Numbered from the stretch's first letter, positions 5,223 through 32,194 are shown. The stretch is 32,194 bases of DNA from a bacterium (GCA_021780375.1 JAJXYT010000061.1:1-32194), one strand, 5' to 3'. Made by a program: numbers and translations. The notes: generated by a model from the sequence alone, not told the origin.

Positions 5223-5223
5223 T

Positions 5224-6993: not shown

Positions 6994-7037
6994 GAGTTTC
7001 AAAGCAAATCATATTGCGGGAAACAGGAGTTGGAAAG

Positions 7038-12866: not shown

Positions 12867-13062
12867 TTTTAAGGAATTATCCCGGCGGTTTTTGCCAAAG
12901 TAAATCAGTAGTTTCTGCAAGACATTTTGGTTTTTGTGTGTTGGCTAAAATGCGATAAACCGCCCTGCGAATCATCAGTTTTTGGATTTCCCATCCGGAC
13001 CAACCCGCGCCGCGGCGCATTCCAAAGTTGAAAATGGCCGTGCGCCTGATAGGGTGGCGAAA

Positions 13063-14365: not shown

Positions 14366-14956
14366 ATGTCTTTGGTGACTCACAGTTTAAAGAAGCTCCC
14401 GACCGGACGTATGTTCCCGGTCCCGCGTGGCGGTCGCCGCCAACGGATTCTCACATCCAAGCGAATCTCCTCCGGCCGACGATGGGAGCAAGGTTTCGTG
14501 CGGACCAAGGCCAAGCGGTCCACCATCAAAAATTTCAAATTCCACGTTCCTCACCCGGGGGTCGCCAAAAGCCTGGATTACATTTCAAGGCACTGGCGCA
14601 AGTCCATTGGCGTCATGGACCTGGTGCGGGTGGCGCGGATGTCGCGTCGCGGTTTTTTGAAGGCCTTTCAAAGACACACCGGCGGGACACCCGGACGCCG
14701 GCTGCGCGCCATCCGATTGGAGAACGCGCGCAGGATGTTACGTGGATCCGATGATAAGCTGGGCACGATTGCGTGCGGTTGCGGTTACCGGAGTGTGAAC
14801 AGTTTTATCATCGCTTTCAAGCGGGAGGTTGGCCTGGCCCCGATCCAGTACCGCGAAAGCAACCAGTCCGGGAGGAGATACAAAACCGGGGAAATGGCTT
14901 CACGGCCACGCAGAATTTCAAATCTTTTTTGCAGAAAGCTTAATGGCGATTGTTAG
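14366..14956 (+). CDS. AraC-family HTH protein lacking the sensor domain (truncated paralog of the upstream regulator)
   Basis: [85 protein letters not shown] aligns along its length with the AraC domain of the preceding gene. Confidence 0.82.
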
Positions 14957-15032
14957 GTTGGTTCGTATAAATTACTCTGAAAGCAAAAGAACCTCAACCC
15001 GCAGCCCGGATGTTCGCCGTCAACATTTTGAT

Positions 15033-15995
15033 ATGAGTCATTTGAATCGAGATACCAGAAGGGGCAGTGAGCCGGTGAGGCGCCGGCCCCAATCCACATC
15101 TGGCGGCGGCTTCACCTTGATCGAATTGCTGGTGGTGATTGCCATCATTGCCATTCTGGCGGCGATGCTGTTACCGGCGTTGGCGGCGGCCAAGTCGAGA
15201 GCTTTGCTGTCGGCTTGCACGAGCAACCTCAGACAGATTGGCATCGGCCTTAGCATTTATGCCGGGGATCACAACGATTTCCTGCCGCAAACCGGCTGGA
15301 AGCAGGGAGGGAATCCCTGGGAAACGTATGAAGCCTGTCGCTACGCCGCCAACAACGAGGACGTGACCACCGGGGTCATCGTCGAAGGGCCTTACGGCTA
15401 TGGCAGTCTTTTCTTTGAGCACTACATTCAGAACCCGAAGGTCTTCTATTGTCCGGCCCTGGACCGCAAGGCGAATAAAACCTATGCGTATGATAATTAT
15501 GCCAAGACGCCTTTGAAGTGGCCGGCGTCACCCGCCACCGGCAACCCGTATGTCCGCTGCGGTTACAATTATTATCCGGAGTCCAGGCAGACGGAAATTG
15601 TCCGTTATGCTGCCAATACCTACAGGCTTCCGGTCTTGCAGTACCAAAAAAGCACCTTCAGCAGCCCCCATGCCGGGGATGCCCCAAACACCATCACCGT
15701 TACGGCGCCGATCAAGTCAGCGAACATCGATCCCAAGAAAGCCCTGTCCACCGACTTGATGCAGCAAATCACAGGTCTGGCCCATCAACTCGCCGGCAAG
15801 CCGGAAGGCGTGAACGTGTTGTTTGGTGATGGCCACGTGAAGTTCCAAACCGTCAGCGGCCATACCGGCACCGGCCAGCCGTTCAACAACGCGTACTGGC
15901 AAAGCAACCCCGCCGGCGGCAGCCAGGATCCCGGCTCCGGCCCCGGTAACAATCCCATTGGCTTTCGCATCATCATGAACGCCTTTCAACCTTGA
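15033..15995 (+). CDS. Type II secretion/prepilin-like protein with N-terminal methylation motif (H-X9-DG type)
   Basis: [34 protein letters not shown] prepilin signal; [25 protein letters not shown]-terminal [15 protein letters not shown] at 15033 is preferred over the upstream start. Confidence 0.9.
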
Positions 15996-16047: not shown

Positions 16048-19000
16048 ATGAAAAGATTCTTTTATTTCAGAATGTCGCTTGCGTTCCTGCTGGTCGGCGT
16101 GCCGCTCGGTGCTCTGGCGGACACGTTCTTTACCGATGATTTCTCCAACGGCAGCACGCTGGACGCATTGAGCGCGCCGGGCGGCACAACGAATGCCTCA
16201 TTTACCAGTTACGACCTGGCCTCCAGCAAGAACGCCACCACCTCGACCATCGGCCCCGGCCTTTTGAGCGGCAAGCTGGGCGGCAACACCACTTCGGGGT
16301 ATTGGGAAGCCCAGGCGCTGTTTGCCACCAACCCGGTGGTCATGGTGGCGCCGGGCGATTATATTGACCTGCAGATCGTCTTCACCAATTCGGCCGGCAC
16401 CCTTTTGACTGGCACGGCTTCGCCGATTTGGGTTGGTTTATTCAACTCGGGCGCGGCACCGGGGACCACCAACCCGCCGGTCGCCGGAGCGCTGGCCAAT
16501 GCGGGCTTGAACACAACCTCCGGCTCCCAGTACGCCACGGGGAATTGCCAGTTGTGGGCCGGTTATGTGGCCCAACTCTATGACGGCGCCGGCTCCAGAA
16601 TCATCACCCGGCCGGTGCAGGATGGAACGGGCACCACTTCGGCCAACCAGGAGTTGCTGGGAAGCGGGGTCAGCGGCGGAACATTCAACAATCCGAGAGG
16701 CACCACCTTGGTGACCAGCCCATTACAAACCTTTGTTCTTGATACCAATACCGCTTATACCATTGACTATCAGATCATGCTCGACCCGGGCGGATCGGGC
16801 AGTCTGATGATCAGCAACACCCTGTACAGCGGCGTGGGCACCGGCGGGTCCATCCTGATGACCAATGCGACGACCACGAGTGCGCCCATCGCCAGCGCCT
16901 TCGATGGGCTGGCCTTCGGCGCCTTTAATCACAATGGCAGCTACAATCCGCAAATAGATGTGTCTTCCATCAGCATTACCGGTCATACCACAATCATCAC
17001 CACACCGCCTACCATCACCAATGAGCCGGTTTCGGTGACGGCCCCGGCCGGCGCTTTTGTCCCCTTCACCGTGGGCGCAACGGGCTTCAACATGATTTAT
17101 CAGTGGCATCGTTATGGCACCAACCTCGTCAACGGCGGCAACATCTCGGGCGTCAACAGCCCCACACTCATTATTTCCCCGGTCACGGCCGCCGATGCGG
17201 CGTCGGGTGCAAACGGCTACTATGTGACTATTACCGGCGCGGGCGGTTACAGCACCAATTCAACCACGGCTTCGCTGACCTTGGGAACCGCCACCAGCTT
17301 GATCTGGTCGGGCAGCGGCAGCGTTTGGGATTTGAATAACACCGCCGACTGGCTCAATCCCAGCAGCCAGGCGACGACCTTCAATTACGGCGATCCGGTC
17401 ACTTTTAATGACACCGGGGTGGCGGCCAACCCGGTCGTGACCTTGACCGGCCAGTATTTGAGCGCTGGCTCCGTGACGGTTAACAGCGCTTCCGGCTACG
17501 TGTTCACCGGCAAGGGCAGCTTTGCCGGGCCGGGCAGTTTGAACTACATCGGCGCCGGTGGCCTGGAGATTGACAATGCCAACACCTACACCGGCGGCAC
17601 CGTTATCAGCAACGCCAGTGCGTATCTCTATCTTAACAACCTGAACGGTCTGGGCACGGGTCCGATCACCTTGGCCCAGGCGGGTGGCAGCATGGAAGTT
17701 GTTCCGACCGGTGGCGCCGCTTATGGGCTAAACGGCGACGTTTCCGTTGCAGACAACTTTACGATTTACTTCGACGGCGATGGTTCTTACGCCGGCGTCC
17801 TTTTTGGCAACCTTTCCGGCACCGGCGGCAAGACTCTGACGCTCGCCCCGAACCCGTTGGTCAACCCGGCCAGCACCAACCGTTACCGGGTTTATGGCGC
17901 CAGCACAGTCTATAATGGAGACCTGGCCCTCGATCCGAATGACCCGCCGGTCGCCAACGCAAATTATACCGGGACGACTTTGGCGCCCTACAATGCCAAC
18001 GGCAGCCAGACCTACAATGGCGTCATCTCGGGAAGCGGCGGAATAGTACAGCGCAGCGGCGGTTCCACCATCCTCAACGGGGCCAATACCTACACCGGCG
18101 GGACCACTCCGACGACCGGGTCGATTGGATTGGGAATTGATTCCACCGGCAACCCCGTTACGGCCGGCCCGATTGGCACCGGCCCGTTGTATCTGGCGCC
18201 CGAACTGCCCAACTCCAGCGGCAGCGGCACCCTCTTCGCCTCCGGTGGCGCCCATGCCATCGCCAATCCGATTCAATATCCCAGCGCGACCAACAATCTG
18301 ACCTTGATCATCGGCGGCACCAACGACCTGACGCTGGCCGGGCCTTTCAGCCTTAACGGCAATGACGGTCTGGGTACGCAAACCAACCGGACTATCGAGG
18401 TGACCGACACCGGCCTGGCCACCATTTCCGGCGTGATCAGCGGTTCGGGCTTTAATCTGGCCAAGACCGGCAGCGGCGTGCTGGCCCTGAATAACGCCGA
18501 AACCTACACCGGCGCCACAACGGTCAACGGCGGCACGTTGCTCGTAAATGGATCGCTTGGCGCGGGCAGCGTCACCGTCACGAGCGGCCGGTTGGGCGGG
18601 TCGGGAACCATTGCCGGTCCGGTCACGGTTGGAAATGGCGGCGGTCTGGCCCCCGGGAACAACGCCATCGGCACGTTGACCATCAACAACACGCTGACAC
18701 TGCAGTCGGGCAGCTCGAATATTTTCGAAGTCAGCCAGACCGCCGGCACGCATGATCAGGTGAATGCGACCTCGGTCAGTTATGGCGGGACATTGTATGC
18801 CACGAATTTGTCCGGCACGCTGGCCCCGGGCGACAGTTTCACTATCTTCAGCGCCGGTTCCGAAACCGGAAACTTTACGACCATTGCCGGTTCGCCGGGC
18901 GCGGGCCTGGCCTGGAGTTTCAATCCGCTCAATGGAGTGCTGAGCGTGGTCAGCGGCGTGGCCACCAATCCCACGAACATCATGGTCTCCGTCAGCAGCG

Positions 19001-19182
19001 GCAACCTGAACCTCTCCTGGCCGGCAGACCACCTCGGCTGGACCTTGCAGACCAACTCGGTGGGGCTGGCGGCCACCAACATGTGGTTCGCGTATCCGGG
19101 ATCAACGTCAGTGACCAATGTGACGATTTCCATTGATCAGACCAGGACCAACGTGTTCTACCGGATGACTTACACTCCATAG
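16048..19182 (+). CDS. Large secreted protein: unnamed N-terminal module, Ig-like domain, autotransporter-associated beta-strand repeats, conserved C-terminal tail
   Basis: Signal peptide MKRFFYFRMSLAFLLVGVPLGALADT; repeats such as NANTYTGGTVIS, GANTYTGGTTPT, NAETYTGATTVNGGTLLVNGSLGAGSVTV; tail LSWPADHLGWTLQTNSVGL...NVFYRMTYTP. Confidence 0.9.
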   Translation: MKRFFYFRMSLAFLLVGVPLGALADTFFTDDFSNGSTLDALSAPGGTTNASFTSYDLASSKNATTSTIGPGLLSGKLGGNTTSGYWEAQALFATNPVVMVAPGDYIDLQIVFTNSAGTLLTGTASPIWVGLFNSGAAPGTTNPPVAGALANAGLNTTSGSQYATGNCQLWAGYVAQLYDGAGSRIITRPVQDGTGTTSANQELLGSGVSGGTFNNPRGTTLVTSPLQTFVLDTNTAYTIDYQIMLDPGGSGSLMISNTLYSGVGTGGSILMTNATTTSAPIASAFDGLAFGAFNHNGSYNPQIDVSSISITGHTTIITTPPTITNEPVSVTAPAGAFVPFTVGATGFNMIYQWHRYGTNLVNGGNISGVNSPTLIISPVTAADAASGANGYYVTITGAGGYSTNSTTASLTLGTATSLIWSGSGSVWDLNNTADWLNPSSQATTFNYGDPVTFNDTGVAANPVVTLTGQYLSAGSVTVNSASGYVFTGKGSFAGPGSLNYIGAGGLEIDNANTYTGGTVISNASAYLYLNNLNGLGTGPITLAQAGGSMEVVPTGGAAYGLNGDVSVADNFTIYFDGDGSYAGVLFGNLSGTGGKTLTLAPNPLVNPASTNRYRVYGASTVYNGDLALDPNDPPVANANYTGTTLAPYNANGSQTYNGVISGSGGIVQRSGGSTILNGANTYTGGTTPTTGSIGLGIDSTGNPVTAGPIGTGPLYLAPELPNSSGSGTLFASGGAHAIANPIQYPSATNNLTLIIGGTNDLTLAGPFSLNGNDGLGTQTNRTIEVTDTGLATISGVISGSGFNLAKTGSGVLALNNAETYTGATTVNGGTLLVNGSLGAGSVTVTSGRLGGSGTIAGPVTVGNGGGLAPGNNAIGTLTINNTLTLQSGSSNIFEVSQTAGTHDQVNATSVSYGGTLYATNLSGTLAPGDSFTIFSAGSETGNFTTIAGSPGAGLAWSFNPLNGVLSVVSGVATNPTNIMVSVSSGNLNLSWPADHLGWTLQTNSVGLAATNMWFAYPGSTSVTNVTISIDQTRTNVFYRMTYTP

Positions 19183-19210
19183 AGAAAAATTGGATCAAAT
19201 GAGTTGTTGT

Positions 19211-19245
19211 AAAAAAGCGGAGCGGGAGACGCTCCGCTTTTTTTT
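19211..19245 (+). terminator. Rho-independent terminator
   Basis: aaaaaagcggagcg-ggaga-cgctccgctttttt followed by further Ts: GC-rich stem, 5-nt loop and a T-run, 29 bp after the stop of the preceding gene. Confidence 0.88.
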
Positions 19246-19283
19246 CAAAACATGCTAATGTTTTGGAAAGTTCGGTGAGATTT

Positions 19284-22200
19284 ATGCAAGATTCGACAAC
19301 GGTTCGGTGCAGTCGTCCGCCTGGAAATTCCAATCCTGGTCTGGCGCCGGCGCGCCGTTTGCCCTTCCCGGGCGGTGCGTCGGCCCGCCCTTGGCTGCGC
19401 GGGCTGGGGATGGTTTTGGTGCTGCTGGGCATGAATGCGGCTTTTGCCGATGTTCCGCTCCCCAATATCAACACCAACAATGTGGTCAACGCGCTTGCCT
19501 ATGGCGCGGCGGGCGACGGGACAAACGACAATACCACCGCGATCCAGAATGCGATCAACGCCGCAGCGGCAGGCGGCCTGACCAACGGCGCCGGCGGCGG
19601 CACGGTGGAAATTCCGGCGGGAACCAACGCCTATTTGTGCGGGCCGATCACCCTCAAAAGCAGCGTGAATTTGCAGATTGACGCCGGCGCCACGTTGCGG
19701 ATGTTGCCGTTCGGGGAATATCCGGTCACCTGGCACACCAACGGCGCCGTCGTCTATTTCGTCGCGAATAACTTCATCACCGGCTCCAGCCTGCACGACA
19801 TTGAAATCAGCGGTTCCGGCTCCATTGACGGGCAGGGCGAGCCATGGTGGCCGTGGGCTAAAACCAACGGCGCCGTGCGGCCGATCATGATCCGGTTGAA
19901 CAGTTGCAACCGCGAGTTGATCCAAAACCTGACACTTTCCAATTCCCCGATGTTCCATATTTCCATCAGCGGCAACAGCGCCGCCAATACCACGGTGCAG
20001 GGCGTCACCATCCGCGCGCCCGCTTCCAGCGCCAATCCGCCTTCACACAACACGGACGCCTGCGACGTGGATGGCACCAACATCCTGGTGCAGAACTGCA
20101 ACATCAGCGTGGGGGACGATGATTTCACCTGCGGCGGCGGCACTTCCTATGTGTTGCTGACCAATAATACCTATGGCGCCGGCCACGGCGTTTCCATCGG
20201 CAGTTACACCGACAGCGGCGTTTCGAACATCACGGTCGTCAACTGCACCTTCAACGGCACCGACAACGGCATTCGCATCAAGTCGGATGCTGGTCGCGGC
20301 GGCCTGGTGCGGAACATCAACTATTACAACCTCGGCATGACGAACGTGGGGTTCCCGATCCAGATTTACGGCTATTACCTTGAAGTCGGCACGCCCAGCA
20401 GCATCACGCCCGCCATTGCCGCCACGCAGACGGTTGCCGCCGTCACCGGCACCACGCCGATGTATCGCGACATCACTTTCAGCAACATCACCGCCACCTC
20501 CGTCAGCGGCCGGCCCATCGGCATCATCTGGGCGCGCACGGAAGCGCCCGCGACGAACATTGTCTTCGACAAGGTCAATATCACCGGCGACCGCAACTTC
20601 TGCCTCTACAATGTCCAGGGCGCACAGTTCATTGACTGCAACCTCACGCCGTCTGCCAGCACGACCACGTTTGCGATGTTCAACGCGCAAGCCGTCATTA
20701 CCAACAGCGCGCCGGCGGGCCAGTGGTTCACTTTTGACGGCTTGACGACGAATGGCTACGGCAATTCGCTGGCCTTCTACAATGCGCAAGGTTCACTGAA
20801 GAACACAAACGCCCTCGACGACGGACCGCTGACGCTCTCGGCCAGCACGTTCACGGTGAGCAACAACCTTACCCTGTTTCCGACCACGGCGCTGAATTTC
20901 GTCCTGGGCGCCAACGCCGCCACGCTCGCCGTGAAAGGAAATCTCACGCTCGGCGGGACGAACAACATTGTCGCCGGTGGCGGATTTGGCAATGGCACTT
21001 ACACGTTGATGACTTACACCGGCGTGCTGGACGGCAATCCGCCCGCGCTGGGAACGACGCCCGCGGGTTACACTTACAGTTTTGATACCAACACCATGGG
21101 CCAGGTGAAGTTGACGGTGGCGCCCATCGCGACTCAACCGCCGCCCGCGCCGGCCAATCTTGTCGCTACGGCCGGCAGCAACAGCGTCACATTGACGTGG
21201 TCGCCCTCCGCGACGGCGACGGGTTACAACGTCAAACGCGCGCTCGTCAGCGGCGGCGAGAACACAACCAATGCCAACATCACGACCACGGGTTACACTG
21301 ACAGGCAGGCCACCAACGGCACGACGTATTATTACGTCGTCTCCGCCGTGAACGGTTTCGGCGAAAGCCCGAATTCCGCCGAGGTGAGCGCCACGCCGCA
21401 GGCGCCATCCTTTGTCATCGTGACCACGAATGTCTTCAGCGACAATTTTTCCGGCAGCACGCTTAATTCAACGTCGCCGACCGCGCCGGCCCCGACGAGC
21501 ACCAGCTATGAATTGATTTCGTCGAAATCCTGGAATCCAACGCCGGCGCACAGCGCGGGGCATTTGCAGTTCGGCATTGCCTCAACGAGCAGCGGCAGCC
21601 TCGAAGTACAGGCGCGGTTCGCAAATCCCGTCACGCTGGCCGACGTGGGCGACAGCGTTTCGTTGACGGTGACGTTCACGAACACCGCCGGCCTCCTGAC
21701 CGGGTCCGGCACCATGGGTTTTGGCCTCTATCAAAGCGGCCGGAATTTTCCCGTGCCCGGCGGGTTGAATGGAACGGCCACCGCCAACTCCAGCAGCAAT
21801 GCCATCGGCAACGCGCAAACCTGGATCGGTTATGTGGGTCAACTTGCGTTCACCGGCGGGAATTGCCGGGTCATGACCCGGCCGGCTCAGTCCGTCTCGC
21901 CGCTTTACAACAACGACCAGGACCTGGTGACCAGCGGCAGCGGCAGTTCCAGCTACAACTATCCGGCCGGCACAACCGTCGGCGCTGCGTCCAGCGCGCC
22001 TTCCGTGACGCTCGCGGCGGGCAATCCGTACACCGAAGTCTTAACCATCGCGCTGGCCGCAACCAACACGCTCGCCATCACCAATTGTCTCTATTCGGGC
22101 ACGGATACGAATGGCCTCTTGTTGTCGCAGTTTGGCGGTGTTGCCTCCGGCGCGACGTATTTGACCAATACCTTCGACGCCCTGGCGGTCGGTTGGCGGG

Positions 22201-22505
22201 AGACCGGCAGTCAGGCCACGGCGATTGACATCAACACGATTGCGGTCAACTCATCCGCCATCGCAGCACTGACAAATTCGGCATCGTCGAATCCAACCAA
22301 TCTGGTCTTTCAAGTCACCGGCGATCAATTGCAACTGTCGTGGCCGGCGGATCATCTGGGTTGGACGCTGCAAACCAACTCCGTCGGGCTGACCGCCACC
22401 CACGCCTGGTTTCCCTATCCGGGATCGGCGTCACTGACTAACGTGGCCGTCCCGATTGATTCGGCCACAACCAATGTATTTTTCCGGTTGATATACACTC
22501 CGTAG
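19284..22505 (+). CDS. GH28 polygalacturonase with fibronectin type III domain, unnamed module and C-terminal tail
   Basis: Start probably MQDSTTVRC at about 19284 (the track start at 19263 is also possible); hydrophobic segment GLGMVLVLLGMNAAFA. GH28 motifs HNTDACDV, VGDDDFTCGGG, GHGVSIGS, IRIKSD; FN3 (PPPAPANLVATAGSNSVTLTWSPSATATGYNVKR); tail LSWPADHLGWTLQTNSVGL. Confidence 0.9.
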   Translation: MQDSTTVRCSRPPGNSNPGLAPARRLPFPGGASARPWLRGLGMVLVLLGMNAAFADVPLPNINTNNVVNALAYGAAGDGTNDNTTAIQNAINAAAAGGLTNGAGGGTVEIPAGTNAYLCGPITLKSSVNLQIDAGATLRMLPFGEYPVTWHTNGAVVYFVANNFITGSSLHDIEISGSGSIDGQGEPWWPWAKTNGAVRPIMIRLNSCNRELIQNLTLSNSPMFHISISGNSAANTTVQGVTIRAPASSANPPSHNTDACDVDGTNILVQNCNISVGDDDFTCGGGTSYVLLTNNTYGAGHGVSIGSYTDSGVSNITVVNCTFNGTDNGIRIKSDAGRGGLVRNINYYNLGMTNVGFPIQIYGYYLEVGTPSSITPAIAATQTVAAVTGTTPMYRDITFSNITATSVSGRPIGIIWARTEAPATNIVFDKVNITGDRNFCLYNVQGAQFIDCNLTPSASTTTFAMFNAQAVITNSAPAGQWFTFDGLTTNGYGNSLAFYNAQGSLKNTNALDDGPLTLSASTFTVSNNLTLFPTTALNFVLGANAATLAVKGNLTLGGTNNIVAGGGFGNGTYTLMTYTGVLDGNPPALGTTPAGYTYSFDTNTMGQVKLTVAPIATQPPPAPANLVATAGSNSVTLTWSPSATATGYNVKRALVSGGENTTNANITTTGYTDRQATNGTTYYYVVSAVNGFGESPNSAEVSATPQAPSFVIVTTNVFSDNFSGSTLNSTSPTAPAPTSTSYELISSKSWNPTPAHSAGHLQFGIASTSSGSLEVQARFANPVTLADVGDSVSLTVTFTNTAGLLTGSGTMGFGLYQSGRNFPVPGGLNGTATANSSSNAIGNAQTWIGYVGQLAFTGGNCRVMTRPAQSVSPLYNNDQDLVTSGSGSSSYNYPAGTTVGAASSAPSVTLAAGNPYTEVLTIALAATNTLAITNCLYSGTDTNGLLLSQFGGVASGATYLTNTFDALAVGWRETGSQATAIDINTIAVNSSAIAALTNSASSNPTNLVFQVTGDQLQLSWPADHLGWTLQTNSVGLTATHAWFPYPGSASLTNVAVPIDSATTNVFFRLIYTP

Positions 22506-22590
22506 AAAATGTTCAGTTGGGATGTCAAACCGCGAGGTGCGGAGTTGCTTTTAAAAAGCCGGCGCATATCCCAACACTGTGGGTGATGCC

Positions 22591-24420
22591 ATGAAGTTGT
22601 CTATTTGCGATAAAGCCGCCGCGACCACGGCGGGAACTGCGCTGCTGTTACTGCTGGCAGGCACCATCTGTCTCGCGGGCCCCCAAGAATATACCGTCGC
22701 GGCGGACGGAAGTGGTGATTTCAGGACTCTCCAGGCGGCGCTGGCCGCCGTTCCGGATGACAACCCCACCCGCATTATTTTTCATATCCGGCCGGGCGTT
22801 TATCAGGGCCAGATTGTCCTGCCCGCCGGCAAATCAAACGTCACCTTCGCGGGAGACGATGCTGCCAAGGTGATATTGACTTATGCCTTGAACATTCACG
22901 AACCGCAGCCGGCGGGCGTCAGCCCGAAATACGCCGGCATTGGGGTGGTCATTCTGGGCGATGATTTTCACGCCGAAAACATCACCTTCCAGAACACCTC
23001 CGGTGATCACGGCCAGGCGCTGGCGTTGCGGGCGGACGGCGACCGGGCGGTATTCAACCATTGCCGAATGGTCGGCTGGCAGGACACACTGAGAGTGGAC
23101 GATGGACGCGATTATTTCACGAATTGTTACATCGCAGGCCGGGTGGATTTCATTTATGGCTCTGCAACGGCGGTGTTTGACCATTGTGAAATTCACAGCC
23201 GGAACGGCGGCCACGTGACGGCCGCCAATACGCCACAGGATCAGCCCTATGGTTTTGTCTTTCTTAATTGCAGACTGACCGGGGATTCAAAGCCGTGGAT
23301 CAATCCAACGGGCCAGCCTCGCAATGAGAGCGCGCATCCCATGGCCGATTTGGGCCGGCCATGGCGCCCTTATGCGAGCGTCGCCTATATCCATTGTTGG
23401 ATGGGCGACCACATCAAGCCGGAGGGTTGGAATAATTGGGGACAAGTATCGAACGAAAAGACCGCTCGTTATTTCGAGTACGACAGCACCGGACCTGGCG
23501 CGAATCCGGCCGCGCGCGTGAAATGGGCGCGCCAGTTGACCGACCCACAAGCCAGCGCTTACACCGTCGCGAATATTCTGCATGGGGACGACGGTTGGGA
23601 TCCAACGCAAGGTGCCCGGATCCCGGAGGCTAATGCGACCGCGCCTTCCACTCAGCCGACGGAAGCGGAACGGAATCGGAGTTTGCCGACGCTGTTTATC
23701 GTTGGCGATTCTACCGTGCATAACCGTGCGCCCGGTTTGCTGGGATGGGGCGATGTGATCGGCCGCTATTTCGATGCCCATAAACTCATCGTCGAAAATG
23801 ATGCCAAACCCGGACGCAGCAGCCGCACGTTTCAGACGCAAGGCTGGTGGGCGCAAATCCTGGCGGCCGCCCGGCCCGGTGATTTTGTCCTGATTCAGAT
23901 GGGCGACAACGATGGCGGGCCATTGGACGATACCAACCGTGCCCGTGGTTCGATTCCTGGCATTGGCGGCCAGACCCGGGAAATCTACAACCCGGTTCTG
24001 CACAAACCGGAGGTGGTCCACACTTATGGCTGGTATATGCGGAAGTACGTTGGCGATGCCCGCGCCAAAGGGATGGTTCCCCTCATTTGCTCGCCCGTGC
24101 CGCGATGGCCCAGACACGCGGTCAAGGCCGGTGACGTGGACAAAACCGGCTATGTGGAATGGTCAGCCGAAGTCGCCCGGCAGGAGCATGTGTTCTTCAT
24201 CGATTTGAATCATCTGGTCCTGAGTCATTACGTCGGCCTGACGCCGCAGGAAATCAAAGCGAAATATTTCACTGCCCGTGACAATACCCACGCCAGTCCG
24301 GCCGGCGCAGCGCTGAACGCCTCCGCGGTCATCGAGGGCTTGCGCGCGCTGAAGGATTGTGCGTTGAACGACTATTTGCGGAACCCGCCCGGCGTGTCTG
24401 AGCCAACGGCGGCCAAATGA
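22591..24420 (+). CDS. CE8 pectinesterase fused to a CE12-like rhamnogalacturonan acetylesterase (SGNH)
   Basis: CE8 motifs GWQDTLRVDDGRDYFTNCYIAGRVDFIYGSATAVFDHC and LGRPWRPYASVAYIHCWMG; SGNH motifs LFIVGDSTVHN, KPGRSSRTF, IQMGDND, DNTHASPAGA; N-terminal signal peptide. Confidence 0.93.
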   Translation: MKLSICDKAAATTAGTALLLLLAGTICLAGPQEYTVAADGSGDFRTLQAALAAVPDDNPTRIIFHIRPGVYQGQIVLPAGKSNVTFAGDDAAKVILTYALNIHEPQPAGVSPKYAGIGVVILGDDFHAENITFQNTSGDHGQALALRADGDRAVFNHCRMVGWQDTLRVDDGRDYFTNCYIAGRVDFIYGSATAVFDHCEIHSRNGGHVTAANTPQDQPYGFVFLNCRLTGDSKPWINPTGQPRNESAHPMADLGRPWRPYASVAYIHCWMGDHIKPEGWNNWGQVSNEKTARYFEYDSTGPGANPAARVKWARQLTDPQASAYTVANILHGDDGWDPTQGARIPEANATAPSTQPTEAERNRSLPTLFIVGDSTVHNRAPGLLGWGDVIGRYFDAHKLIVENDAKPGRSSRTFQTQGWWAQILAAARPGDFVLIQMGDNDGGPLDDTNRARGSIPGIGGQTREIYNPVLHKPEVVHTYGWYMRKYVGDARAKGMVPLICSPVPRWPRHAVKAGDVDKTGYVEWSAEVARQEHVFFIDLNHLVLSHYVGLTPQEIKAKYFTARDNTHASPAGAALNASAVIEGLRALKDCALNDYLRNPPGVSEPTAAK

Positions 24421-24433
24421 ATTCCCGGAACTC

Positions 24434-25774
24434 ATGAACCGGAACTATTTCGCACTAACGATGACAATTCCAATCACAGCCTTTCTGGCCAGCCTGCTGG
24501 TGTTGGCACCACCCGTCACGCAGCCGGCTCAGGCTCAATCATTTTCCGTTGCTCCCGCGTTGCCGGTAATTCCAGCTCACGTTTATAATATCATCCATTA
24601 CGGCGCGATCGGCGATGGTGTCGCAACCAACACGGCAGCGATGCAAGCTGCCATTAATGCCGCGCAGGATGCCGGAGGTGGCGTCGTGCAAGTGCCGGCG
24701 GGAGTCTTTCTGAGCGGACCCGTCCGGCTGGCCAATCATATCAATCTGCAGATAGACCACGGAGGGACGCTGCGAATGTTGCCGCTCGCCAAATATCCCG
24801 GCGGCACCACCGACCCGGCGAACTTCATCAACGGCTCGAAATTGCACGACATTGCCATCACCGGCTCTGGCATGATTGATGGCCAGGGTGTTCCCTGGTG
24901 GCCTTACGCCCGGCAACAGGGCGCCCGACGGCCGCGGATGATTTCGCTTTTGTCGTGCGACCGCGTGTTGATTCAAGACGTCACGCTGAGCAATTCGCCG
25001 ATGTTCCACATCGCCATTGGCGGCAGATCGGCCAACGTCACCGTCCGCGGTGTCACCATCCGCGCGAATCCCTCAACCGATCCGGTTCACCCCGGCCACA
25101 ACACGGACGCGTGCGATGTCAGCGGCACCAATATTTTGATAGAAAACTGCAACGTGAGCGTGGGGGACGATGACTTTACCTGCGGCGGCGGCACGGCGGA
25201 TGTCCTTATCACCAACTGCACGTACGGTTATGGTCATGGTGTTTCCATCGGCAGTCATACTTACGGCGGCGTGTCAAACCTCACCGTCATCAATTGCACC
25301 TTCAATAACACAGAACAAGGCATTCGGATCAAATCCGACCGCGATCGCGGCGGCTTGGTGCGCCATCTTTATTACCTGAACCTCCACATGACCAACGTGG
25401 ATTGTCCAATTCTGATCTACGGTTCCTACATGGCCACCAACCGTGTTTACCGTAATTTGAACAAGCTCACGCCCGCCGCCGCCGCCAGCTATCCGAGCCA
25501 TGCGGTTGAAGCCCGCACTCCGATCTACCGTGACATCACGTTCAGCAACCTCACGGCCACGGTGCAACCCGGACGCCGGGCGGGTTTGATCTGGGGATTG
25601 CCGGAAATGCCGGTCACCAATGTGTTGCTGCAGCGGGTCAACATCACCGCCGACCGGCCCTTTGGCATCTATGACGCGCGCGGTGTCCGGCTGGTGGATT
25701 GCCGGATCATCACCCCGGACGGCGTCAACCAACTTTCAAGCACCAACGCCCAGGTCGCGATTTCTCCCCGGTGA
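24434..25774 (+). CDS. GH28 polygalacturonase, short single-domain paralog of the 19.3-22.5 kb GH28
   Basis: Signal peptide; GH28 motifs HNTDACDVSGTNILIENCNVSVGDDDFTCGGGTADVLITNCTYGYGHGVSIGS, GIRIKSDRDRGGLVRHLYY. Confidence 0.93.
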   Translation: MNRNYFALTMTIPITAFLASLLVLAPPVTQPAQAQSFSVAPALPVIPAHVYNIIHYGAIGDGVATNTAAMQAAINAAQDAGGGVVQVPAGVFLSGPVRLANHINLQIDHGGTLRMLPLAKYPGGTTDPANFINGSKLHDIAITGSGMIDGQGVPWWPYARQQGARRPRMISLLSCDRVLIQDVTLSNSPMFHIAIGGRSANVTVRGVTIRANPSTDPVHPGHNTDACDVSGTNILIENCNVSVGDDDFTCGGGTADVLITNCTYGYGHGVSIGSHTYGGVSNLTVINCTFNNTEQGIRIKSDRDRGGLVRHLYYLNLHMTNVDCPILIYGSYMATNRVYRNLNKLTPAAAASYPSHAVEARTPIYRDITFSNLTATVQPGRRAGLIWGLPEMPVTNVLLQRVNITADRPFGIYDARGVRLVDCRIITPDGVNQLSSTNAQVAISPR

Positions 25775-25856
25775 CAAGCTCGCCGGAGCTTTCCATCTGA
25801 ACGGACTTTTGGCCCGCCCTGGCCGTGCTGTTTCTGCCCCTGGTCACTCGTCCGGT

Positions 25857-28418
25857 TCAAGGAACGGTGATGAGGTAGAACCGCTGTGGAATATTGGTTG
25901 ATTGACTGTCTTCAAATGAATCCGTGGTCCCGAAAATTCCGTTCGTCAGTGTCGTCCACGTATTGGTCACGGGCGTCAGGGACAAATTGGTGGCGGCCCA
26001 AATGCGATAATGCCAGCCGGCCGTGCCGGCATAAGCGAATTGGATATTTCCGTCAGCCGCCCGGGTGACCGTTTTGAATACCGGAACCGCAGGCCTGACG
26101 GGCACGAGTTGAAAACCGTTCAGGTAAGCACCCGCACCCGGGCCATTCAGAAGAAAACTGAAATTTCCCGAGGCGTCCGTCTGGCCGTGGAGCACCGCCC
26201 ACGTTGTTCCTGGAGGCATTAAATTGGCCGTCCCGCCTGCCACCGTCCAAAGACTTCCGTATGCTCCATTGCTGTTCGCGGTCGCATTGGTCGTGACGGC
26301 TGAGGCCGGATTTGGCCCCCAAATATTCGCCGCCGCCAGGGTCACCCCCGCACCCTGGCCGGCAGTGGTCGTTCCGCCTTCAAGATAAAGGTCATACGGG
26401 CTCGAATTGGATAGTCCGGAGATGGCAAAGATGAAGTCATTGCCGCTGGCGTTGTAATAATTGCGCCAGGCATTGGCCATCACCCCGCCGGGTTGAAGGG
26501 TGTTTTCGCCGCCGGCCCCGGAGGGTTGCGTCCTGGCGCCGGTGCTGACCCGGTTGGTGTAGGCAATGGTCAGCGTCGGCGTGATGCTGGCGCCAATGGA
26601 ATTCACCAGGGGAAGGTTCACATATAAATTTGAAATCGTGCCGGCGACACTGTTCGTCCCGACAACATTTTTTAAATCCACCGTGTTCCACGTCGGGCCG
26701 GGCACCGGCGCGGCGGCGCTGTAAGTATAACCGACGGGCGCAGAGATATTGACGGTGGACGGTCCCGTGGCGGAAGTCCGCAGGGCGACAAAAATGTTTT
26801 GCGCGACGCTCGGCAGCGCCTGGGTCACGATCAACGGGGAAACACAAACGACGACATTATTGGACATCATTGAGCCGTCCCCGGCGACCACGGAAAATTT
26901 GAAACTGCCCAGGCCGGAGAAATTGGGGTCGGGAACAAACCGCGCGATGGCGCCAACGAGTGAGACGACGCCGTTGCTCGCGACGCTGACGGCACAGGTG
27001 GCGTTGGGGGCGAACCCGGCGGCGTATTGCGACAGGTCAATGTCCACGGCCGTGTTGGTTTCCGTGACGATGTGCGGCGCCGCCAGCCAGTTCAAATAAT
27101 GTTCCAACAGCGTGTAACCGTCGGCCGTATTGGTCAGCGGATAATAGACGTTGGTACTCAGGCCGATCGCGAGCTTCCAATAATCCGGGAGGCCGTCGCC
27201 GCTGGAGTTGATCGGAGCCGTGCCGGCCGTGAGGGTGCCATAGCCATTGTTGCCCAGACCGGTGGAAGTCTGGTCGTAGTACAGGCTGGACCCCGGCCCG
27301 GCCGTACCGGCGCCAGTGCCGGCCGGGCCGTTGCCCAGCGTCTGAATCTGGCTCAAAATCAGCGAATCCAATGGATCCCGCGGCAGGGCGCCGGCCCACG
27401 AGGTGTCGTAGTGACAGGCGCCTGCGGCCGAAAAAACGGTCGCGTTCGTCGAGAGCGCCGACCACGGCGCGGTCAACACGGTCCCGCCGCCGCCGGGGCC
27501 AATCGCGCTGCCGTTGAGCGCGCCGTCATTGTTGTTGTCGCGCAAATTGCCGGTGGCATAAATCGTCTGGTTGGAATTGATTTGAAAAAAGGCATTGGCG
27601 CCGGAGGGATCCGTCGGGCCGGTAATGAAATAATTGTCGATGATATCGTGGCGGAAATGGCCACTGGTATTGGCGACCGTGTAACCGCCCTGAAAGTTGT
27701 AAATCGTATTGTTGACGAAAATCGTATCAATTTTGGCCAGCGGCTGGCGGTTGTGTTCGCTCACCCATAGATTGTAATACCAGGAAAATTTCCCGCCCAG
27801 GTGCTCCGTATGCGCGCCGAATCCCTGCTTGGCTGAGGTCCCGTTATACATCGGATCGCCGATAATCGAGTTCTGCACGGTGATGGCGTCGCTGCCGTAG
27901 GTGCCGTGTGCGTCAATGTTGTTGTAGCCGGCAAATTCCAGCGAGACGTGATCAAAGATCATGTTCGTCCCGTCGCCGACGTTGATCGCGTCCTCGCCGG
28001 AGCTGGATAAACTGCCGGGGCGAATGCGAAGATAACGGACGATTTCATTCGTTCGGGCGCTGAAAGAAACCTCGTGACCGATGATGGCGATGCCGCCGCC
28101 GGGCGCGGTTTGCCCGGCGATGGTGAGGTCGCTCGAACAGGAAACCGCACTGCTGAGGACAATCGTGCCGCCGACGTCGAAGACAATGGTGCGGTGGGAG
28201 TGGCTGACCGCGTCACGAAACGAACCCGGGCCGCTGTCGGCGAGGGTCGTGACGTGATATACCGTGCCATTGCGTCCGCCGGTGGCATCGGCGCCGAAGC
28301 CCAACGCCCCGGGAAAGGCCGGGCTTTGTGCCAAAGCCGCCGGAGCCGCCGCCAGGGTCACCCAAAACCACGCCCTGAGTTTACGGGATAATTCGCCAAA
28401 CTGGACGCGGGGAAACAT
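25857..28418 (-). CDS. Secreted PL1-like pectate lyase with C-terminal beta-rich modules and conserved tail
   Basis: FPGALGFGADATGGRNGTVYHVTTLADSGPGSFRDAV, TIVFDVGGTIVLSS, LTIAGQTAPGGGIAIIGHEVSFSARTNEIVRYLRIRPG, MIFDHVSLEFA; signal peptide; tail YRIWAATNLSLTPVTNTW...IPQRFYLITVP. Confidence 0.87.
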   Translation of the reverse strand: MFPRVQFGELSRKLRAWFWVTLAAAPAALAQSPAFPGALGFGADATGGRNGTVYHVTTLADSGPGSFRDAVSHSHRTIVFDVGGTIVLSSAVSCSSDLTIAGQTAPGGGIAIIGHEVSFSARTNEIVRYLRIRPGSLSSSGEDAINVGDGTNMIFDHVSLEFAGYNNIDAHGTYGSDAITVQNSIIGDPMYNGTSAKQGFGAHTEHLGGKFSWYYNLWVSEHNRQPLAKIDTIFVNNTIYNFQGGYTVANTSGHFRHDIIDNYFITGPTDPSGANAFFQINSNQTIYATGNLRDNNNDGALNGSAIGPGGGGTVLTAPWSALSTNATVFSAAGACHYDTSWAGALPRDPLDSLILSQIQTLGNGPAGTGAGTAGPGSSLYYDQTSTGLGNNGYGTLTAGTAPINSSGDGLPDYWKLAIGLSTNVYYPLTNTADGYTLLEHYLNWLAAPHIVTETNTAVDIDLSQYAAGFAPNATCAVSVASNGVVSLVGAIARFVPDPNFSGLGSFKFSVVAGDGSMMSNNVVVCVSPLIVTQALPSVAQNIFVALRTSATGPSTVNISAPVGYTYSAAAPVPGPTWNTVDLKNVVGTNSVAGTISNLYVNLPLVNSIGASITPTLTIAYTNRVSTGARTQPSGAGGENTLQPGGVMANAWRNYYNASGNDFIFAISGLSNSSPYDLYLEGGTTTAGQGAGVTLAAANIWGPNPASAVTTNATANSNGAYGSLWTVAGGTANLMPPGTTWAVLHGQTDASGNFSFLLNGPGAGAYLNGFQLVPVRPAVPVFKTVTRAADGNIQFAYAGTAGWHYRIWAATNLSLTPVTNTWTTLTNGIFGTTDSFEDSQSTNIPQRFYLITVP

Positions 28419-28430
28419 CAGTTTTTTTGC

Positions 28431-31400
28431 CTAAGGCATGGTGATGAGATAGAACCGCTGCGGCAGCCTGCCCGCCGGATCGGCGAAAATTGTCGGCGTG
28501 GTGTCGAAGACGCCGTTCGTGAGCAGGGTCCAGGTGCTGGTGACCGGTGTCAAGGCGAGGTTCGTGGTCGCCCAGACGCGATAACCAAAGCCCGCCGACC
28601 CGGCCGGGCCGCTGATGGCAAACTGGACGTTTCCGCTGTTGTCCACCGACGGTGAAACAATGGTTGCCGGGGTGGTGGGGGCATTGACCGTCAAAACCGC
28701 ATTGCTGCTGGTAACACTGCCGGAACCGTTCGAAACGATGACTGAATAGGCGCCGATGTCCAGTCCGCTCGCGCTGCTGATGGTGAGCGTCGGTCCGGTT
28801 TGTCCGACGAGGTTGGCGCCATCCTTCAACCATTGATACGTCGGATCCGGAATGCCGGTGGCGCTGACCGTGAAGCTCACGCCCTGGCCGGCGTTAACCG
28901 TTTGACCGGTCGGCTGGCCGATGATGTTCGGCGCCATTTGCGGTTGCCAGCCGGAAAGCCAGTTCGTGGCGCTCAGGGCCATGGACACAATCGGGTTGGT
29001 CGCCGACAAGTGCGTTGAGTAGAGCAGCGTCTTGGGCAGCGTAGCCGTCAGGTTGCTGTCGGCGTAATCCCAGAAGTTGCTGCCGGCGTCGGAATTGTAG
29101 CCGGTGATAAAATCACCCATCAGGCACTGGCTGAAGATGACCTCCGCAGGCGTGGTGGGCGTGTTGATGGAACGGCCGAGGTCGGCGCTGGTCACGTTGC
29201 TGCTGCCTGCCGTCACCTGGCAGTTGACGAATGAAAATCCGTTCTGACCGGCTGGCGAGCGCGGCTGGGTCACATGGCCGCCGGTGCTCATCACGCGCAA
29301 TTCGCAATTTGTCCAATACACCGTGCCGTAACCCCAGTTGAAGTCAGTGTCGCCTTGGATCAGGCTGTCCTGGAAATAAACCAGCTTGCCGGCGGAATGA
29401 ACCAGGAACGTGTCCTGATAGCTGTCGAGATTCATGTTATTGAAGATGGCGCGGGTGCCCTCAACATCAATCGCCTCGGCCTGGGAACCGCCTTTTGGCG
29501 TCATGTTGGTGAGCGTGACATTTTCAAACGAGCAATCGTTGCCGTTCACTATAAAGGCAGCGCGCCAGGGAGCGCCGGCGTTGACATTGTTGTTGTTCGG
29601 ATAACCGATCATGGCGCCGGCGCGGCTCTGACCGCGGAAATCCAGATTGTTCTTCGATTTCACGTCCACGATTTCCGTGTAAGTGCCGTTGCGGACGTTG
29701 ATCGTCGTCGGCGTGGTGTTGTTCGCCGGCACGAAATCCACCGCGCCCTGCACGGTGTCGAAGTCGCCACCGCCATCCGCCGCCACCACGAGGTTGGTCG
29801 GATTGAACGGGCCACCGGGCTTGGTGGTGAACTGCCAGGCGTTCGTGGCGGTGATGCCGGCGAAATAAGCGCCGTTGGTGTCGCTGAATGCACCGTCATC
29901 CACCGTGACATAATAAGTCTGATTCGAGGTCAACAGGTCCAAGTGCGGATAGATGGCCGCCGTGTTGCCGGTGATGATGACCGGGAAGGTAGTGAACGTG
30001 TCGCCGGCAATGGTCCGCTGCTGGACGTTCACGGCATAAGGCGTCTGCAAAGTCTGATTCAAGCTCAGGTCAATCGTGTCCACCGGCGTGGCGGAATTGG
30101 TCACGTTGTAGATGCGAACGGCGCCCCGGGTGTTCAGCACGGGCGTCTGGCTGAACGAAAGGTAAAGCGGCGTGTCGTAGCAAATACCTGTCGCGCCATT
30201 GGCTGGCGTCAAGGCGGCAGCCGACATGGTGGAGTTGACCGTCAAGGTGACACTGACCGTATTGGTCGCGCCTGCTGCGTTGGTAATCATGCACGTATAA
30301 GAGGCCATGTCACTCGGCGACGCGCTGGCAATGGTAAGCGTGGCATTGGTGGCCGTGATGTTGACTGCGCTGGAAATCGGTGTGCCGTTCTCACTCCATT
30401 GATAAGCGACGCCCGGCACGCCTGTGGCGCCCACGGTAAACGAAGCGGCTTGCGTGTTGGTCACCACCAGGCTGGTCGGCTCCGCACTGATGGCCGGCGG
30501 CACCCACACCGTCAGCGTCGCGCTGTTGGTGACACTGCCCACGCTGTTGCTGGCCACGATGTAATATGAATAACCGTTCTGCGAATACTGCACATTCGTC
30601 AACGTCAAGGTCCTGCCTGTGGCTCCGGGGAGGGGCGTCCGGGTTTGATCCAGCCACTGCAACGTGGGCAGCGGCACGCCGGCGGCCGAAGCGCTGAACG
30701 TTCCGGTATTGCCTTGAATCACCGTGAGGTCGGCCGGGCCGGTGATGAAGGGCAAGATGTCGTGTGTGGCCACGGTCAGATTCATGCTGTTGGTCACGAT
30801 GCCCGCGCTGTTGCTGGCGATCAGGGAATACGTGACGCCGTCGGCCAGTTGCACATTGGTGATATTCAAGGTGCTGTTGGTGCTGCCGGCGATGATGGAG
30901 CCATTCGCATCCAGTCCGTCAACCAGATCCACACCATTGGTCTGCCATTGGAGGGTTGGCGCCGGTACGCCCGAAACGGCCGGGCTGATGATCACGGTAT
31001 CGCCGACCAGGGCGGCCTGGTCGTTCAAATCGGCGATGTTCGGCGTGACAATGACCGAGAGCGTCATGGTGGCCGAACTGGCGCCCGGCGCATTGGCGGC
31101 CACCAAAGTATATTGATAATTGTTCTGCGAGTACTGGACATTGGTCAAGGTAATCGCGGGAGCGGTTGCCCAGGAGATGGCATTGGAGGTCGCGCCACCA
31201 TCGGTGCTGACATACCATTGGCACCCCGGGGTGGGATTACCCGTCACCGTCGGACTCAGGGTGAGGTTGTTGCCAGCAATGGCCGTTTGATCGTTGAGAC
31301 CGGCAATGGATGGCGGGTAATAATAATTGGTTGAGATCGTAATCTGGCTTATGTCCATTTGCGGGTTATAACCGGTGCCTTTGTTGGCGATACCAATGGC

Positions 31401-32194
31401 AAGTCCATCATATGAATTGTCATAATTGGTATAGGTGGTTCCACCGGTGGTGGTGTTGGTCTGAGCCGAGAGCAAGTTGCCGTTCGAATCGAAAAGGTTG
31501 TTGATGATGGTGATGGTTCCGGGCGCCGAAAGGAGAGCGGTGAAGCTCGACGTGTATTGCGCTCCTGCGGTAAGCGTCACCCCCGAGGTCAAAGTGCTGC
31601 CGATTTGCGTCCCGGTTGGGTTTTTATACAACCCGGTGCCAGCCCCGTTGAAGAGAAGATCCTGATCCCCATTGTTCGGGCTTGCCCCGGTCTGCCTCGG
31701 GCGGGTATAGACTGAGGAGGCGTTCCCGTTGTAATTAATCTGTGCCGCATATCCCTGCCAATCCTGGCAGTTCCCCGAGGCATACGTGGTGGCGCTGCTG
31801 AGACCAGCATTATTGAGCAAACCGGCCAGTGGCAAGTTGCCGCCCGAATTGTACAAGCCCACATCAATGACCGAGCCATTTCCGCCTTTCAACAAAGTGC
31901 CGGTGGTATTTGTAAAAGTCACGGTCAGATTAATGCTGTCACCCACGTTGACCAACTGAACCGGCGTGCTGGTGAACAATGCCTGCAGTTCAATGTAGCC
32001 CGCCGTGGTGGCACCGCCGAGCTTCATCGTCAGATCGTTGGCGGCAATCGCGCAACTGGTGCCATTCTTGGTCGAAGCCACATCATAACTGGTTGAAGAG
32101 GCTGCGGGCGTTCCCCCGGGCGTGCTGGTTCCGTTCAGCGTACTGCCGCCGAAGGTGTCGTTGAAGAGGACCGTCTGCGCCCGGGCCGCCGGCC
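28431..32194 (-). CDS. Giant secreted protein: unnamed module, about 4 Ig-like domains, SbsA-type Ig-like domain, divergent CE8 pectinesterase, Ig-like domain, conserved tail; N-terminus beyond the right edge
   Basis: Frame stays open through the right edge (AQTVLFNDTFGGSTLNGTSTPGG...). Ig-like repeats carry LTLTNVQYSQN.Y.Y.(L/I)VA.N..G; CE8 part VVAADGGGDFDTVQGAVDFVPANN, DSYQDTFLV, DTDFNWGYGTVYWTNC; tail YRVWATTNLALTPVTSTW...LPQRFYLITMP. Confidence 0.88.
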   Translation of the reverse strand, partial: PAARAQTVLFNDTFGGSTLNGTSTPGGTPAASSTSYDVASTKNGTSCAIAANDLTMKLGGATTAGYIELQALFTSTPVQLVNVGDSINLTVTFTNTTGTLLKGGNGSVIDVGLYNSGGNLPLAGLLNNAGLSSATTYASGNCQDWQGYAAQINYNGNASSVYTRPRQTGASPNNGDQDLLFNGAGTGLYKNPTGTQIGSTLTSGVTLTAGAQYTSSFTALLSAPGTITIINNLFDSNGNLLSAQTNTTTGGTTYTNYDNSYDGLAIGIANKGTGYNPQMDISQITISTNYYYPPSIAGLNDQTAIAGNNLTLSPTVTGNPTPGCQWYVSTDGGATSNAISWATAPAITLTNVQYSQNNYQYTLVAANAPGASSATMTLSVIVTPNIADLNDQAALVGDTVIISPAVSGVPAPTLQWQTNGVDLVDGLDANGSIIAGSTNSTLNITNVQLADGVTYSLIASNSAGIVTNSMNLTVATHDILPFITGPADLTVIQGNTGTFSASAAGVPLPTLQWLDQTRTPLPGATGRTLTLTNVQYSQNGYSYYIVASNSVGSVTNSATLTVWVPPAISAEPTSLVVTNTQAASFTVGATGVPGVAYQWSENGTPISSAVNITATNATLTIASASPSDMASYTCMITNAAGATNTVSVTLTVNSTMSAAALTPANGATGICYDTPLYLSFSQTPVLNTRGAVRIYNVTNSATPVDTIDLSLNQTLQTPYAVNVQQRTIAGDTFTTFPVIITGNTAAIYPHLDLLTSNQTYYVTVDDGAFSDTNGAYFAGITATNAWQFTTKPGGPFNPTNLVVAADGGGDFDTVQGAVDFVPANNTTPTTINVRNGTYTEIVDVKSKNNLDFRGQSRAGAMIGYPNNNNVNAGAPWRAAFIVNGNDCSFENVTLTNMTPKGGSQAEAIDVEGTRAIFNNMNLDSYQDTFLVHSAGKLVYFQDSLIQGDTDFNWGYGTVYWTNCELRVMSTGGHVTQPRSPAGQNGFSFVNCQVTAGSSNVTSADLGRSINTPTTPAEVIFSQCLMGDFITGYNSDAGSNFWDYADSNLTATLPKTLLYSTHLSATNPIVSMALSATNWLSGWQPQMAPNIIGQPTGQTVNAGQGVSFTVSATGIPDPTYQWLKDGANLVGQTGPTLTISSASGLDIGAYSVIVSNGSGSVTSSNAVLTVNAPTTPATIVSPSVDNSGNVQFAISGPAGSAGFGYRVWATTNLALTPVTSTWTLLTNGVFDTTPTIFADPAGRLPQRFYLITMP

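What the first reader, a model, noticed from the sequence alone, without database searches (positions are those of the whole stretch)
16120..32167. An unnamed ~280-aa module recurs in three different secreted proteins of the pectin locus
Three segments align end to end although the host proteins differ: (A) 16120-16990 in the beta-strand-repeat protein, (B) 21421-22260 at the C-terminal side of a GH28/FN3 protein, (C) 31325-32167 (minus) in the Ig-rich CE8 protein. Shared blocks: D(D/N/T)F..GSTL; TSY(D/E)..S(S/T)K; (P)GD.(I/V).L...FTN(S/T)(A/T)G.LL.G; (L/N)..AG / GNCQ.W.GY(V/A)AQ; R..TRP.Q; Q(E/D)L(L/V)..G.......N(P)(R/A)GT; the span ends (A/S).(F/Y)D(G/A)LA(F/V/I)G...........(I/M)D(I/V)..I.I. 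It is N-terminal in A and C but C-terminal in B, so it behaves as a mobile domain rather than a fixed linker. The beta-rich composition and invariant Trp/Tyr positions suggest a carbohydrate-binding (possibly pectin-binding) or surface-assembly module. I do not recognise it as a named family, which is not proof that it is unnamed.
Basis: partly seen in the sequence, partly recalled or inferred. Interest (0 to 1): 0.85.

Follow-up and report, generated by a model that had tools for sequence, protein, structure and literature searches.

The report
Mobile lectin-like module on pectin enzymes
A previously unnamed ~280-residue protein module, predicted to fold like plant and animal sugar-binding lectins, has been attached repeatedly to pectin-cutting enzymes and surface proteins of Verrucomicrobiota bacteria, and probably holds these proteins on plant pectin.

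Summary
The three segments align end to end (37-43% identity; pairwise E 1e-31 to 7e-54), and a fourth copy in the same genome is a stand-alone PEP-CTERM protein flanked by polygalacturonase genes. No segment or relative matches Pfam, NCBIfam or a PDB sequence meaningfully. Two AlphaFold models (pTM 0.85 and 0.89) are beta-sandwiches whose best PDB fold matches are L-type (legume/ERGIC-53) lectins (E 2e-8 to 6e-8), though TM-scores are only about 0.35-0.52; legume-lectin and alginate-lyase signatures are absent. The family occurs in 20 of 49 sampled genomes of the window's genus and in Opitutaceae-type relatives. Every host with a recognised enzyme domain is a pectin enzyme: 9 pectin methylesterases (CE8), 7 polygalacturonases (GH28), 5 pectate lyases. 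The module tree needs about six module/pectin-enzyme lineages. About 20 further hosts are beta-strand-repeat (PATR) proteins, each preceded by a prepilin gene; PATR proteins lacking the module often are too. Best reading: a non-catalytic carbohydrate-binding module of the concanavalin-A superfamily, most likely targeting pectin, which also exists as a stand-alone PEP-CTERM protein. Binding is inferred, not shown.

The parts
16120..16992 (+). Module copy A, N-terminal in the beta-strand-repeat (PATR) protein
   Evidence: profile match E 2e-135; BLASTP to B and C
16048..19182 (+). Host A: signal peptide, module, Ig-like, PATR repeats, C-terminal tail
   Evidence: ORF; Pfam PATR and Ig_3
17299..18948 (+). 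PATR beta-strand-repeat region of host A
   Evidence: Pfam PF12951, TIGR02601; used as query
21432..22262 (+). Module copy B, C-terminal in the GH28 protein
   Evidence: profile match E 1e-130; AF2 pTM 0.89
19263..22505 (+). Host B: GH28 - FN3 - module - C-terminal tail
   Evidence: Pfam PF00295 E 4e-53, PF00041
31320..32168 (-). Module copy C, N-terminal in the CE8 protein
   Evidence: profile match E 3e-142; AF2 pTM 0.85
28431..32192 (-). Host C (5' end off the contig): module - Ig domains - CE8 pectinesterase - Ig - C-terminal tail
   Evidence: Pfam PF07679, PF01095 E 5e-28
29169..29795 (-). CE8 pectinesterase domain of host C
   Evidence: PF01095 match
14829..15995 (+). Prepilin-type (N_methyl/DUF1559) gene directly upstream of host A; the same pairing is seen at every module-PATR host with a readable upstream region
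22579..24420 (+). Neighbour without module: CE8 plus GDSL-type esterase
   Evidence: PF01095 E 3e-69; used as query
24434..25774 (+). Neighbour without module: GH28
   Evidence: PF00295
25857..28418 (-). Neighbour without module: pectate-lyase-like protein; pectate-lyase-type hosts in Opitutaceae-type genomes do carry the module
   Evidence: NCBIfam PelZ E 3e-21, below cut-off
18955..19179 (+). 75-aa C-terminal tail shared by hosts A and B (63% identical; 16 places in the genome)
22278..22502 (+). Same C-terminal tail in host B
12982..14208 (+). XylR-type regulator (periplasmic-binding-like + AraC HTH); similar genes lie beside module-PATR genes in L045, L055, L056, L059

Best explanation
The segment is a mobile, non-catalytic carbohydrate-binding module with a concanavalin-A-like (L-type-lectin-like) beta-sandwich. 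It exists as a stand-alone secreted PEP-CTERM protein and has been fused several times to exported enzymes that attack homogalacturonan (CE8, GH28, pectate lyase) and to prepilin-associated PATR surface proteins. It most likely works by holding the enzyme, or the cell surface, on pectin. The candidate site is the conserved loop region that carries W137, Y140, R156 and Q159, with K34 (numbering of copy C). Shown: homology, mobility, host repertoire, predicted fold. Inferred: glycan binding, pectin as the ligand, and the site.
For: Common domain. Profile finds 20 of 49 genus genomes and Opitutaceae-type/other relatives. Unbiased Pfam scan of 39 hosts: the only enzyme families are pectinesterase (8), GH28 (6) and Pect-lyase_RHGA (3); further hosts add Pectate_lyase_4 and another pectinesterase; classified totals are 9 CE8, 7 GH28, 5 PL. 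Tree: GH28 modules form one clade, CE8 modules about three lineages, PL at least two. Stand-alone PEP-CTERM members lie next to GH28/CE8/PL genes in 5 of 7 loci. Genus-wide, module genomes all have CE8 (20/20 against 12/29, Fisher 9e-6) and more GH28 (mean 10.5 against 4.4). Fold. No PL7-type catalytic signature in any of 56 modules.
Against: About 20 of the hosts are PATR proteins without a recognised enzyme, and only 8 of those loci show a pectin gene in the fetched flanks. The modules are slightly acidic (net -1 to -16 in PATR, -2 to -7 in GH28 hosts), which does not favour simple electrostatic binding of a polyanion. TM-scores to lectins are at most about 0.52 and the loop with the conserved residues is the least confident part of the models. 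One host carries RCC1 repeats and no pectin domain (L101). GH28/CE8 richness may only mark plant-polysaccharide specialists.
Confidence: 0.6

Rival explanations
1. The module is primarily a PEP-CTERM-type surface or matrix protein body: it mediates retention or assembly at the cell surface or in exopolysaccharide, and its presence in pectin enzymes keeps them near the cell without touching pectin.
For: Stand-alone forms end in PEP-CTERM; weak relatives in other families are ORFs of 286-368 aa with PEP-CTERM-like ends; exosortase in 48 of 49 genus genomes; many hosts are PATR proteins paired with prepilin genes.
Against: The fused forms lack PEP-CTERM, and the enzyme hosts are only pectin enzymes, which a general anchor would not predict.
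Confidence: 0.2
2. The module binds a neutral glycan that accompanies pectin (RG-I galactan/arabinan) or another wall polymer, not homogalacturonan itself.
For: Fold matches include galactose-specific lectins; the modules are not basic; the L045 neighbourhood reads as holding a solute symporter and galactokinase (by sequence reading only).
Against: The enzyme partners act on the galacturonan backbone (CE8, GH28, PL).
Confidence: 0.15
3. It is a spacer or folding/stability domain with no ligand, carried along by duplication.
For: Low-charge, Ser/Thr-rich beta domain next to Ig/FN3 linker domains.
Against: Stand-alone members; invariant W137 and R156 in a loop region, not only core residues; repeated association with one enzyme class.
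Confidence: 0.04
4. It is a catalytic domain (for example a PL7-like lyase or laminarinase-type hydrolase) on the same fold.
For: Fold matches include PL7 alginate lyases.
Against: No PL7 signature (R[ST]EL R, QIH, YFKAG) in any of 56 modules.
Confidence: 0.01

Closest known systems
L-type lectins (legume lectins, ERGIC-53/p58)
   Same: Best Foldseek matches of both models, probability 1.00, E 2e-8 to 6e-8 over nearly the whole domain.
   Different: 7-15% identity, TM 0.35-0.52; legume-lectin signature patterns absent from all 56 modules; different genomic and domain setting.
PL7 alginate lyases (concanavalin-A-like fold)
   Same: Among the top 50 fold matches of copy C.
   Different: Catalytic signatures absent.
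CBM77 (homogalacturonan-binding module)
   Same: Single beta-sandwich module with homogalacturonan specificity (PMC9668655), the role expected here.
   Different: No sequence match through Pfam or PDB chain sequences; not compared residue by residue here.
PEP-CTERM exported proteins of Verrucomicrobiota
   Same: Stand-alone members are PEP-CTERM proteins, open frames of 341-399 codons.
   Different: PEP-CTERM names only the 24-aa sorting tail; the body is unnamed, and fused copies lack the tail.

Membership tests
L-type lectin (legume/ERGIC-53) | Concanavalin-A-like beta-sandwich | tested here: met
   Foldseek probability 1.00, E 2e-8 to 6e-8, but TM only 0.35-0.52
L-type lectin (legume/ERGIC-53) | Sequence signatures with the metal-binding Asp (legume lectin beta and alpha patterns, recalled from PROSITE) | tested here: not met
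   0 of 56 modules match either pattern
L-type lectin (legume/ERGIC-53) | Match to the family profile | tested here: not met
   No lectin family in Pfam at E<=10
PL7 alginate lyase | Catalytic motifs R(S/T)EL R, Q(I/V)H, YFKAGxY (recalled) | tested here: not met
   0 of 56 modules
Known CBM families held in Pfam | Profile match over the module | tested here: not met
   no CBM even at E<=10
CAZy CBM families not in Pfam | Profile match (dbCAN) | not testable with these tools
Carbohydrate-binding module (functional class) | Independent fold, part of a carbohydrate-active enzyme | tested here: met
   Independent fold predicted; fused to CE8, GH28 and PL
Carbohydrate-binding module (functional class) | Measured binding to a glycan | not testable with these tools
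   needs experiment
PEP-CTERM protein (stand-alone members) | C-terminal PEP-CTERM motif and exosortase in the genome | tested here: met
   PF07589 E 7e-6 on the fourth copy; exosortase in G000

The most novel reading that the evidence does not exclude
A new carbohydrate-binding-module family: a lectin-fold module dedicated to pectin, arisen from a PEP-CTERM surface protein of Verrucomicrobiota and recruited independently to methylesterase, polygalacturonase and pectate lyase, so that one shared module co-localises a complete homogalacturonan-degrading set and, through the prepilin-paired PATR proteins, the cell itself on pectin.
Probability: 0.35. Interest if true: 0.7.

Novelty: new variant of a known kind. 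Interest (0 to 1): 0.52.

Why it matters
Pectin-specific binding modules are few, and the large multidomain secreted proteins of uncultured Verrucomicrobiota are mostly unannotated. A module that marks pectin enzymes across families would let annotators recognise pectin loci and the unknown PATR and PEP-CTERM proteins in them, and gives a concrete, small protein to express and test. It would also show how a stand-alone exported surface protein and a targeting domain shared by a whole degradation pathway can be one and the same family.

Tried and rejected
Chance similarity or compositional bias: rejected (pairwise E down to 7e-54, invariants held over 56 modules). A known Pfam/NCBIfam family or solved homologue by sequence: none (the single PDB hit, a Sel1-repeat protein at E 1.7, is noise). 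The idea that the prepilin gene is a partner of the module itself: weakened, because PATR proteins without the module in the same genome are also next to prepilin genes in five of seven loci. A spread on plasmids or phages: no match. The short resemblance of the C-terminal FDGLA(I/F)G motif to the ADGLAF loop of legume lectins (recalled) was considered and not used, because it lies at the wrong place in the order of strands. The search for related loci with the 39-row alignment failed for lack of a conserved stretch; a six-row alignment worked. Literature searches found no description of the module.

Full report
CHECK OF THE OBSERVATION. The three segments are in open frames and align over their full length. 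Pairwise BLASTP gives A/B 37% (E 1e-31), A/C 43% (7e-54), B/C 39% (3e-40). Profile limits are A 16120-16992, B 21432-22262, C 31320-32168 minus. Host C runs off the contig end, so its start and most of its signal peptide are missing; this is an assembly limit. The same profile finds a fourth copy in the genome, contig 156, bases 58201-59028 minus: a 333-aa protein made of a signal peptide, the module and a PEP-CTERM tail, flanked by two GH28 genes.

NOT A NAMED FAMILY IN THE LIBRARIES HELD. Single segments and 39 relatives match nothing relevant in Pfam at E<=10, nothing in NCBIfam (stray hits at E>=0.015 in one or two members), and no PDB chain sequence. dbCAN and InterPro were not available.

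DISTRIBUTION. With the three-copy profile, 20 of 49 sampled genomes of the window's genus (own genome included) have the module and none of 48 genomes of other families in the order do. With the 39-row profile, sampling the class and phylum finds it in another family, f66, and in f84, plus weak PEP-CTERM-like relatives. Named records are Limisphaerales, 'Verrucomicrobia subdivision 3' and one Opitutaceae bacterium. Plasmid and phage collections have none by tblastn.

HOST REPERTOIRE. An unbiased Pfam scan of 39 hosts gives Ig domains, PATR repeats (16), pectinesterase (8), GH28 (6), fn3 (6), PEP-CTERM (4) and no other enzyme family except the overlapping Pect-lyase_RHGA model. Hosts from f66 and f84 add Pectate_lyase_4 and one more pectinesterase; one has RCC1 repeats. 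Classified together: 9 CE8 (module N-terminal), 7 GH28 (module C-terminal), 5 pectate-lyase type (both positions), about 20 PATR (N-terminal), 7 stand-alone PEP-CTERM, and three f66 proteins with two modules each around Ig domains. Five of seven stand-alone genes have GH28, CE8 or PL genes in their flanks; 8 of 20 PATR loci do (some flanks are cut by contig ends). The classification used pectin enzymes as queries, so the claim 'only pectin enzymes' rests on the unbiased.

MOBILITY. A maximum-likelihood tree of 56 modules groups GH28-linked modules in one clade (100/99), CE8-linked modules in about three places and PL-linked ones in at least two; all host classes together need 12 changes against a minimum of 6. 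The three window copies fall in two separate parts of the tree (B with GH28 modules; A and C with other PATR and CE8 modules), so they are not recent duplicates within the locus. Across the genus, module genomes all have CE8 genes (20/20 against 12/29, Fisher 9e-6) and more GH28 genes (mean 10.5 against 4.4); fused CE8 genes are included in that count, and general plant-polysaccharide specialisation is an obvious confounder.

FOLD. AlphaFold2 with 18 sequences gives pTM 0.85 for C and 0.89 for B, all-beta. Foldseek against the PDB puts legume lectins first for both, with ERGIC-53/p58 for B and PL7 alginate lyases for C also in the lists; the viral library gives phage proteins, one of them annotated concanavalin-A-like. 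E-values are strong, TM-scores are modest (0.35-0.52), so I claim the superfamily, not the family. The most conserved polar and aromatic residues (W137, R156 in all 56; Y140, Q159, K34 in 93% or more) lie mostly in a long region of loops and short strands between the main strands, a natural place for a ligand site and also the least confident part of the model. Lectin and PL7 signatures are absent.

MECHANISM. Best supported: the module is exported with its host and holds it on its substrate. The partners, which de-esterify (CE8), hydrolyse (GH28) and cleave (PL) homogalacturonan, share only this polymer, so pectin is the likeliest ligand; this step is inferred. The modules are slightly acidic, so binding, if real, would have to rely on aromatic stacking, the invariant Arg and perhaps Ca2+ rather than a basic surface. 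The PATR forms may do the same for the cell. The main rival is that the module is a surface/matrix protein body.

PREPILIN PAIRING. Every module-PATR host with a readable upstream region (20 loci, counting four whose repeats were recognised by Pfam and two cut off by a contig end) has a prepilin-type gene immediately upstream on the same strand (gap -69 to +81 bases), against none of 9 CE8, 7 GH28, 5 PL or 7 stand-alone hosts. With 64 prepilin-like genes in a 4 Mb genome this is far above chance. PATR proteins without the module are also next to prepilin genes in 5 of 7 loci of the genome, so the pairing belongs to the PATR class. It may point to a pilus-like surface system; a paper on Planctomycetes cell biology that holds the words pili, crateriform and polysaccharide (PMC5394234) was found but not read here.

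VERDICT. A real, mobile, unnamed domain family with a lectin-like predicted fold and a strong link to pectin enzymes: a new variant of a known kind (carbohydrate-binding module in the concanavalin-A superfamily), with ligand binding still to be tested.

Noticed in passing
14829-15995 and loci L043, L045, L046, L048-L061, L064, L066: A prepilin-type gene stands directly upstream of every module-PATR gene; PATR genes without the module are often beside prepilin genes too (5 of 7 loci in the own genome).
   Followed up: partly
18955-19179 and 22278-22502: Hosts A and B share a 75-aa C-terminal tail (63% identical; SWPADHLGWTLQTN...) that recurs in 16 places of the genome, mostly in large ORFs: perhaps a secretion or anchoring tail.
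   Followed up: partly
25860-26081 and 28434-28655 (minus): A second type of C-terminal tail (N(V/I)QFA...WT.LTNG.F...QRFYLIT.P) is shared by host C and the pectate-lyase-like protein.
   Followed up: no
12982-14208; L045:10125-11333, L055:5734-6990, L056:7252-7986, L059:8214-9395: A XylR-type regulator recurs next to the prepilin/module-PATR pair, also outside pectin loci.
   Followed up: partly
L045:2000-5428: Near a module-PATR gene lie what read as a galactokinase and a sodium/solute symporter, suggesting galactose use; not confirmed by profile.
   Followed up: no
L095, L096, L099: Opitutaceae-type proteins with two modules around Ig domains and no known enzyme domain; in L095 and L096 directly upstream of a pectate-lyase gene with its own module.
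   Followed up: partly
1-7002 (minus): A type I restriction-modification locus (HsdR-, HsdS- and HsdM-like ORFs with an extra ORF at 2725-3924) lies beside the pectin locus; read from the translations only.
   Followed up: no
own genome: 64 prepilin-like genes and many PATR proteins of 860-1628 aa in one 4 Mb genome.
   Followed up: partly
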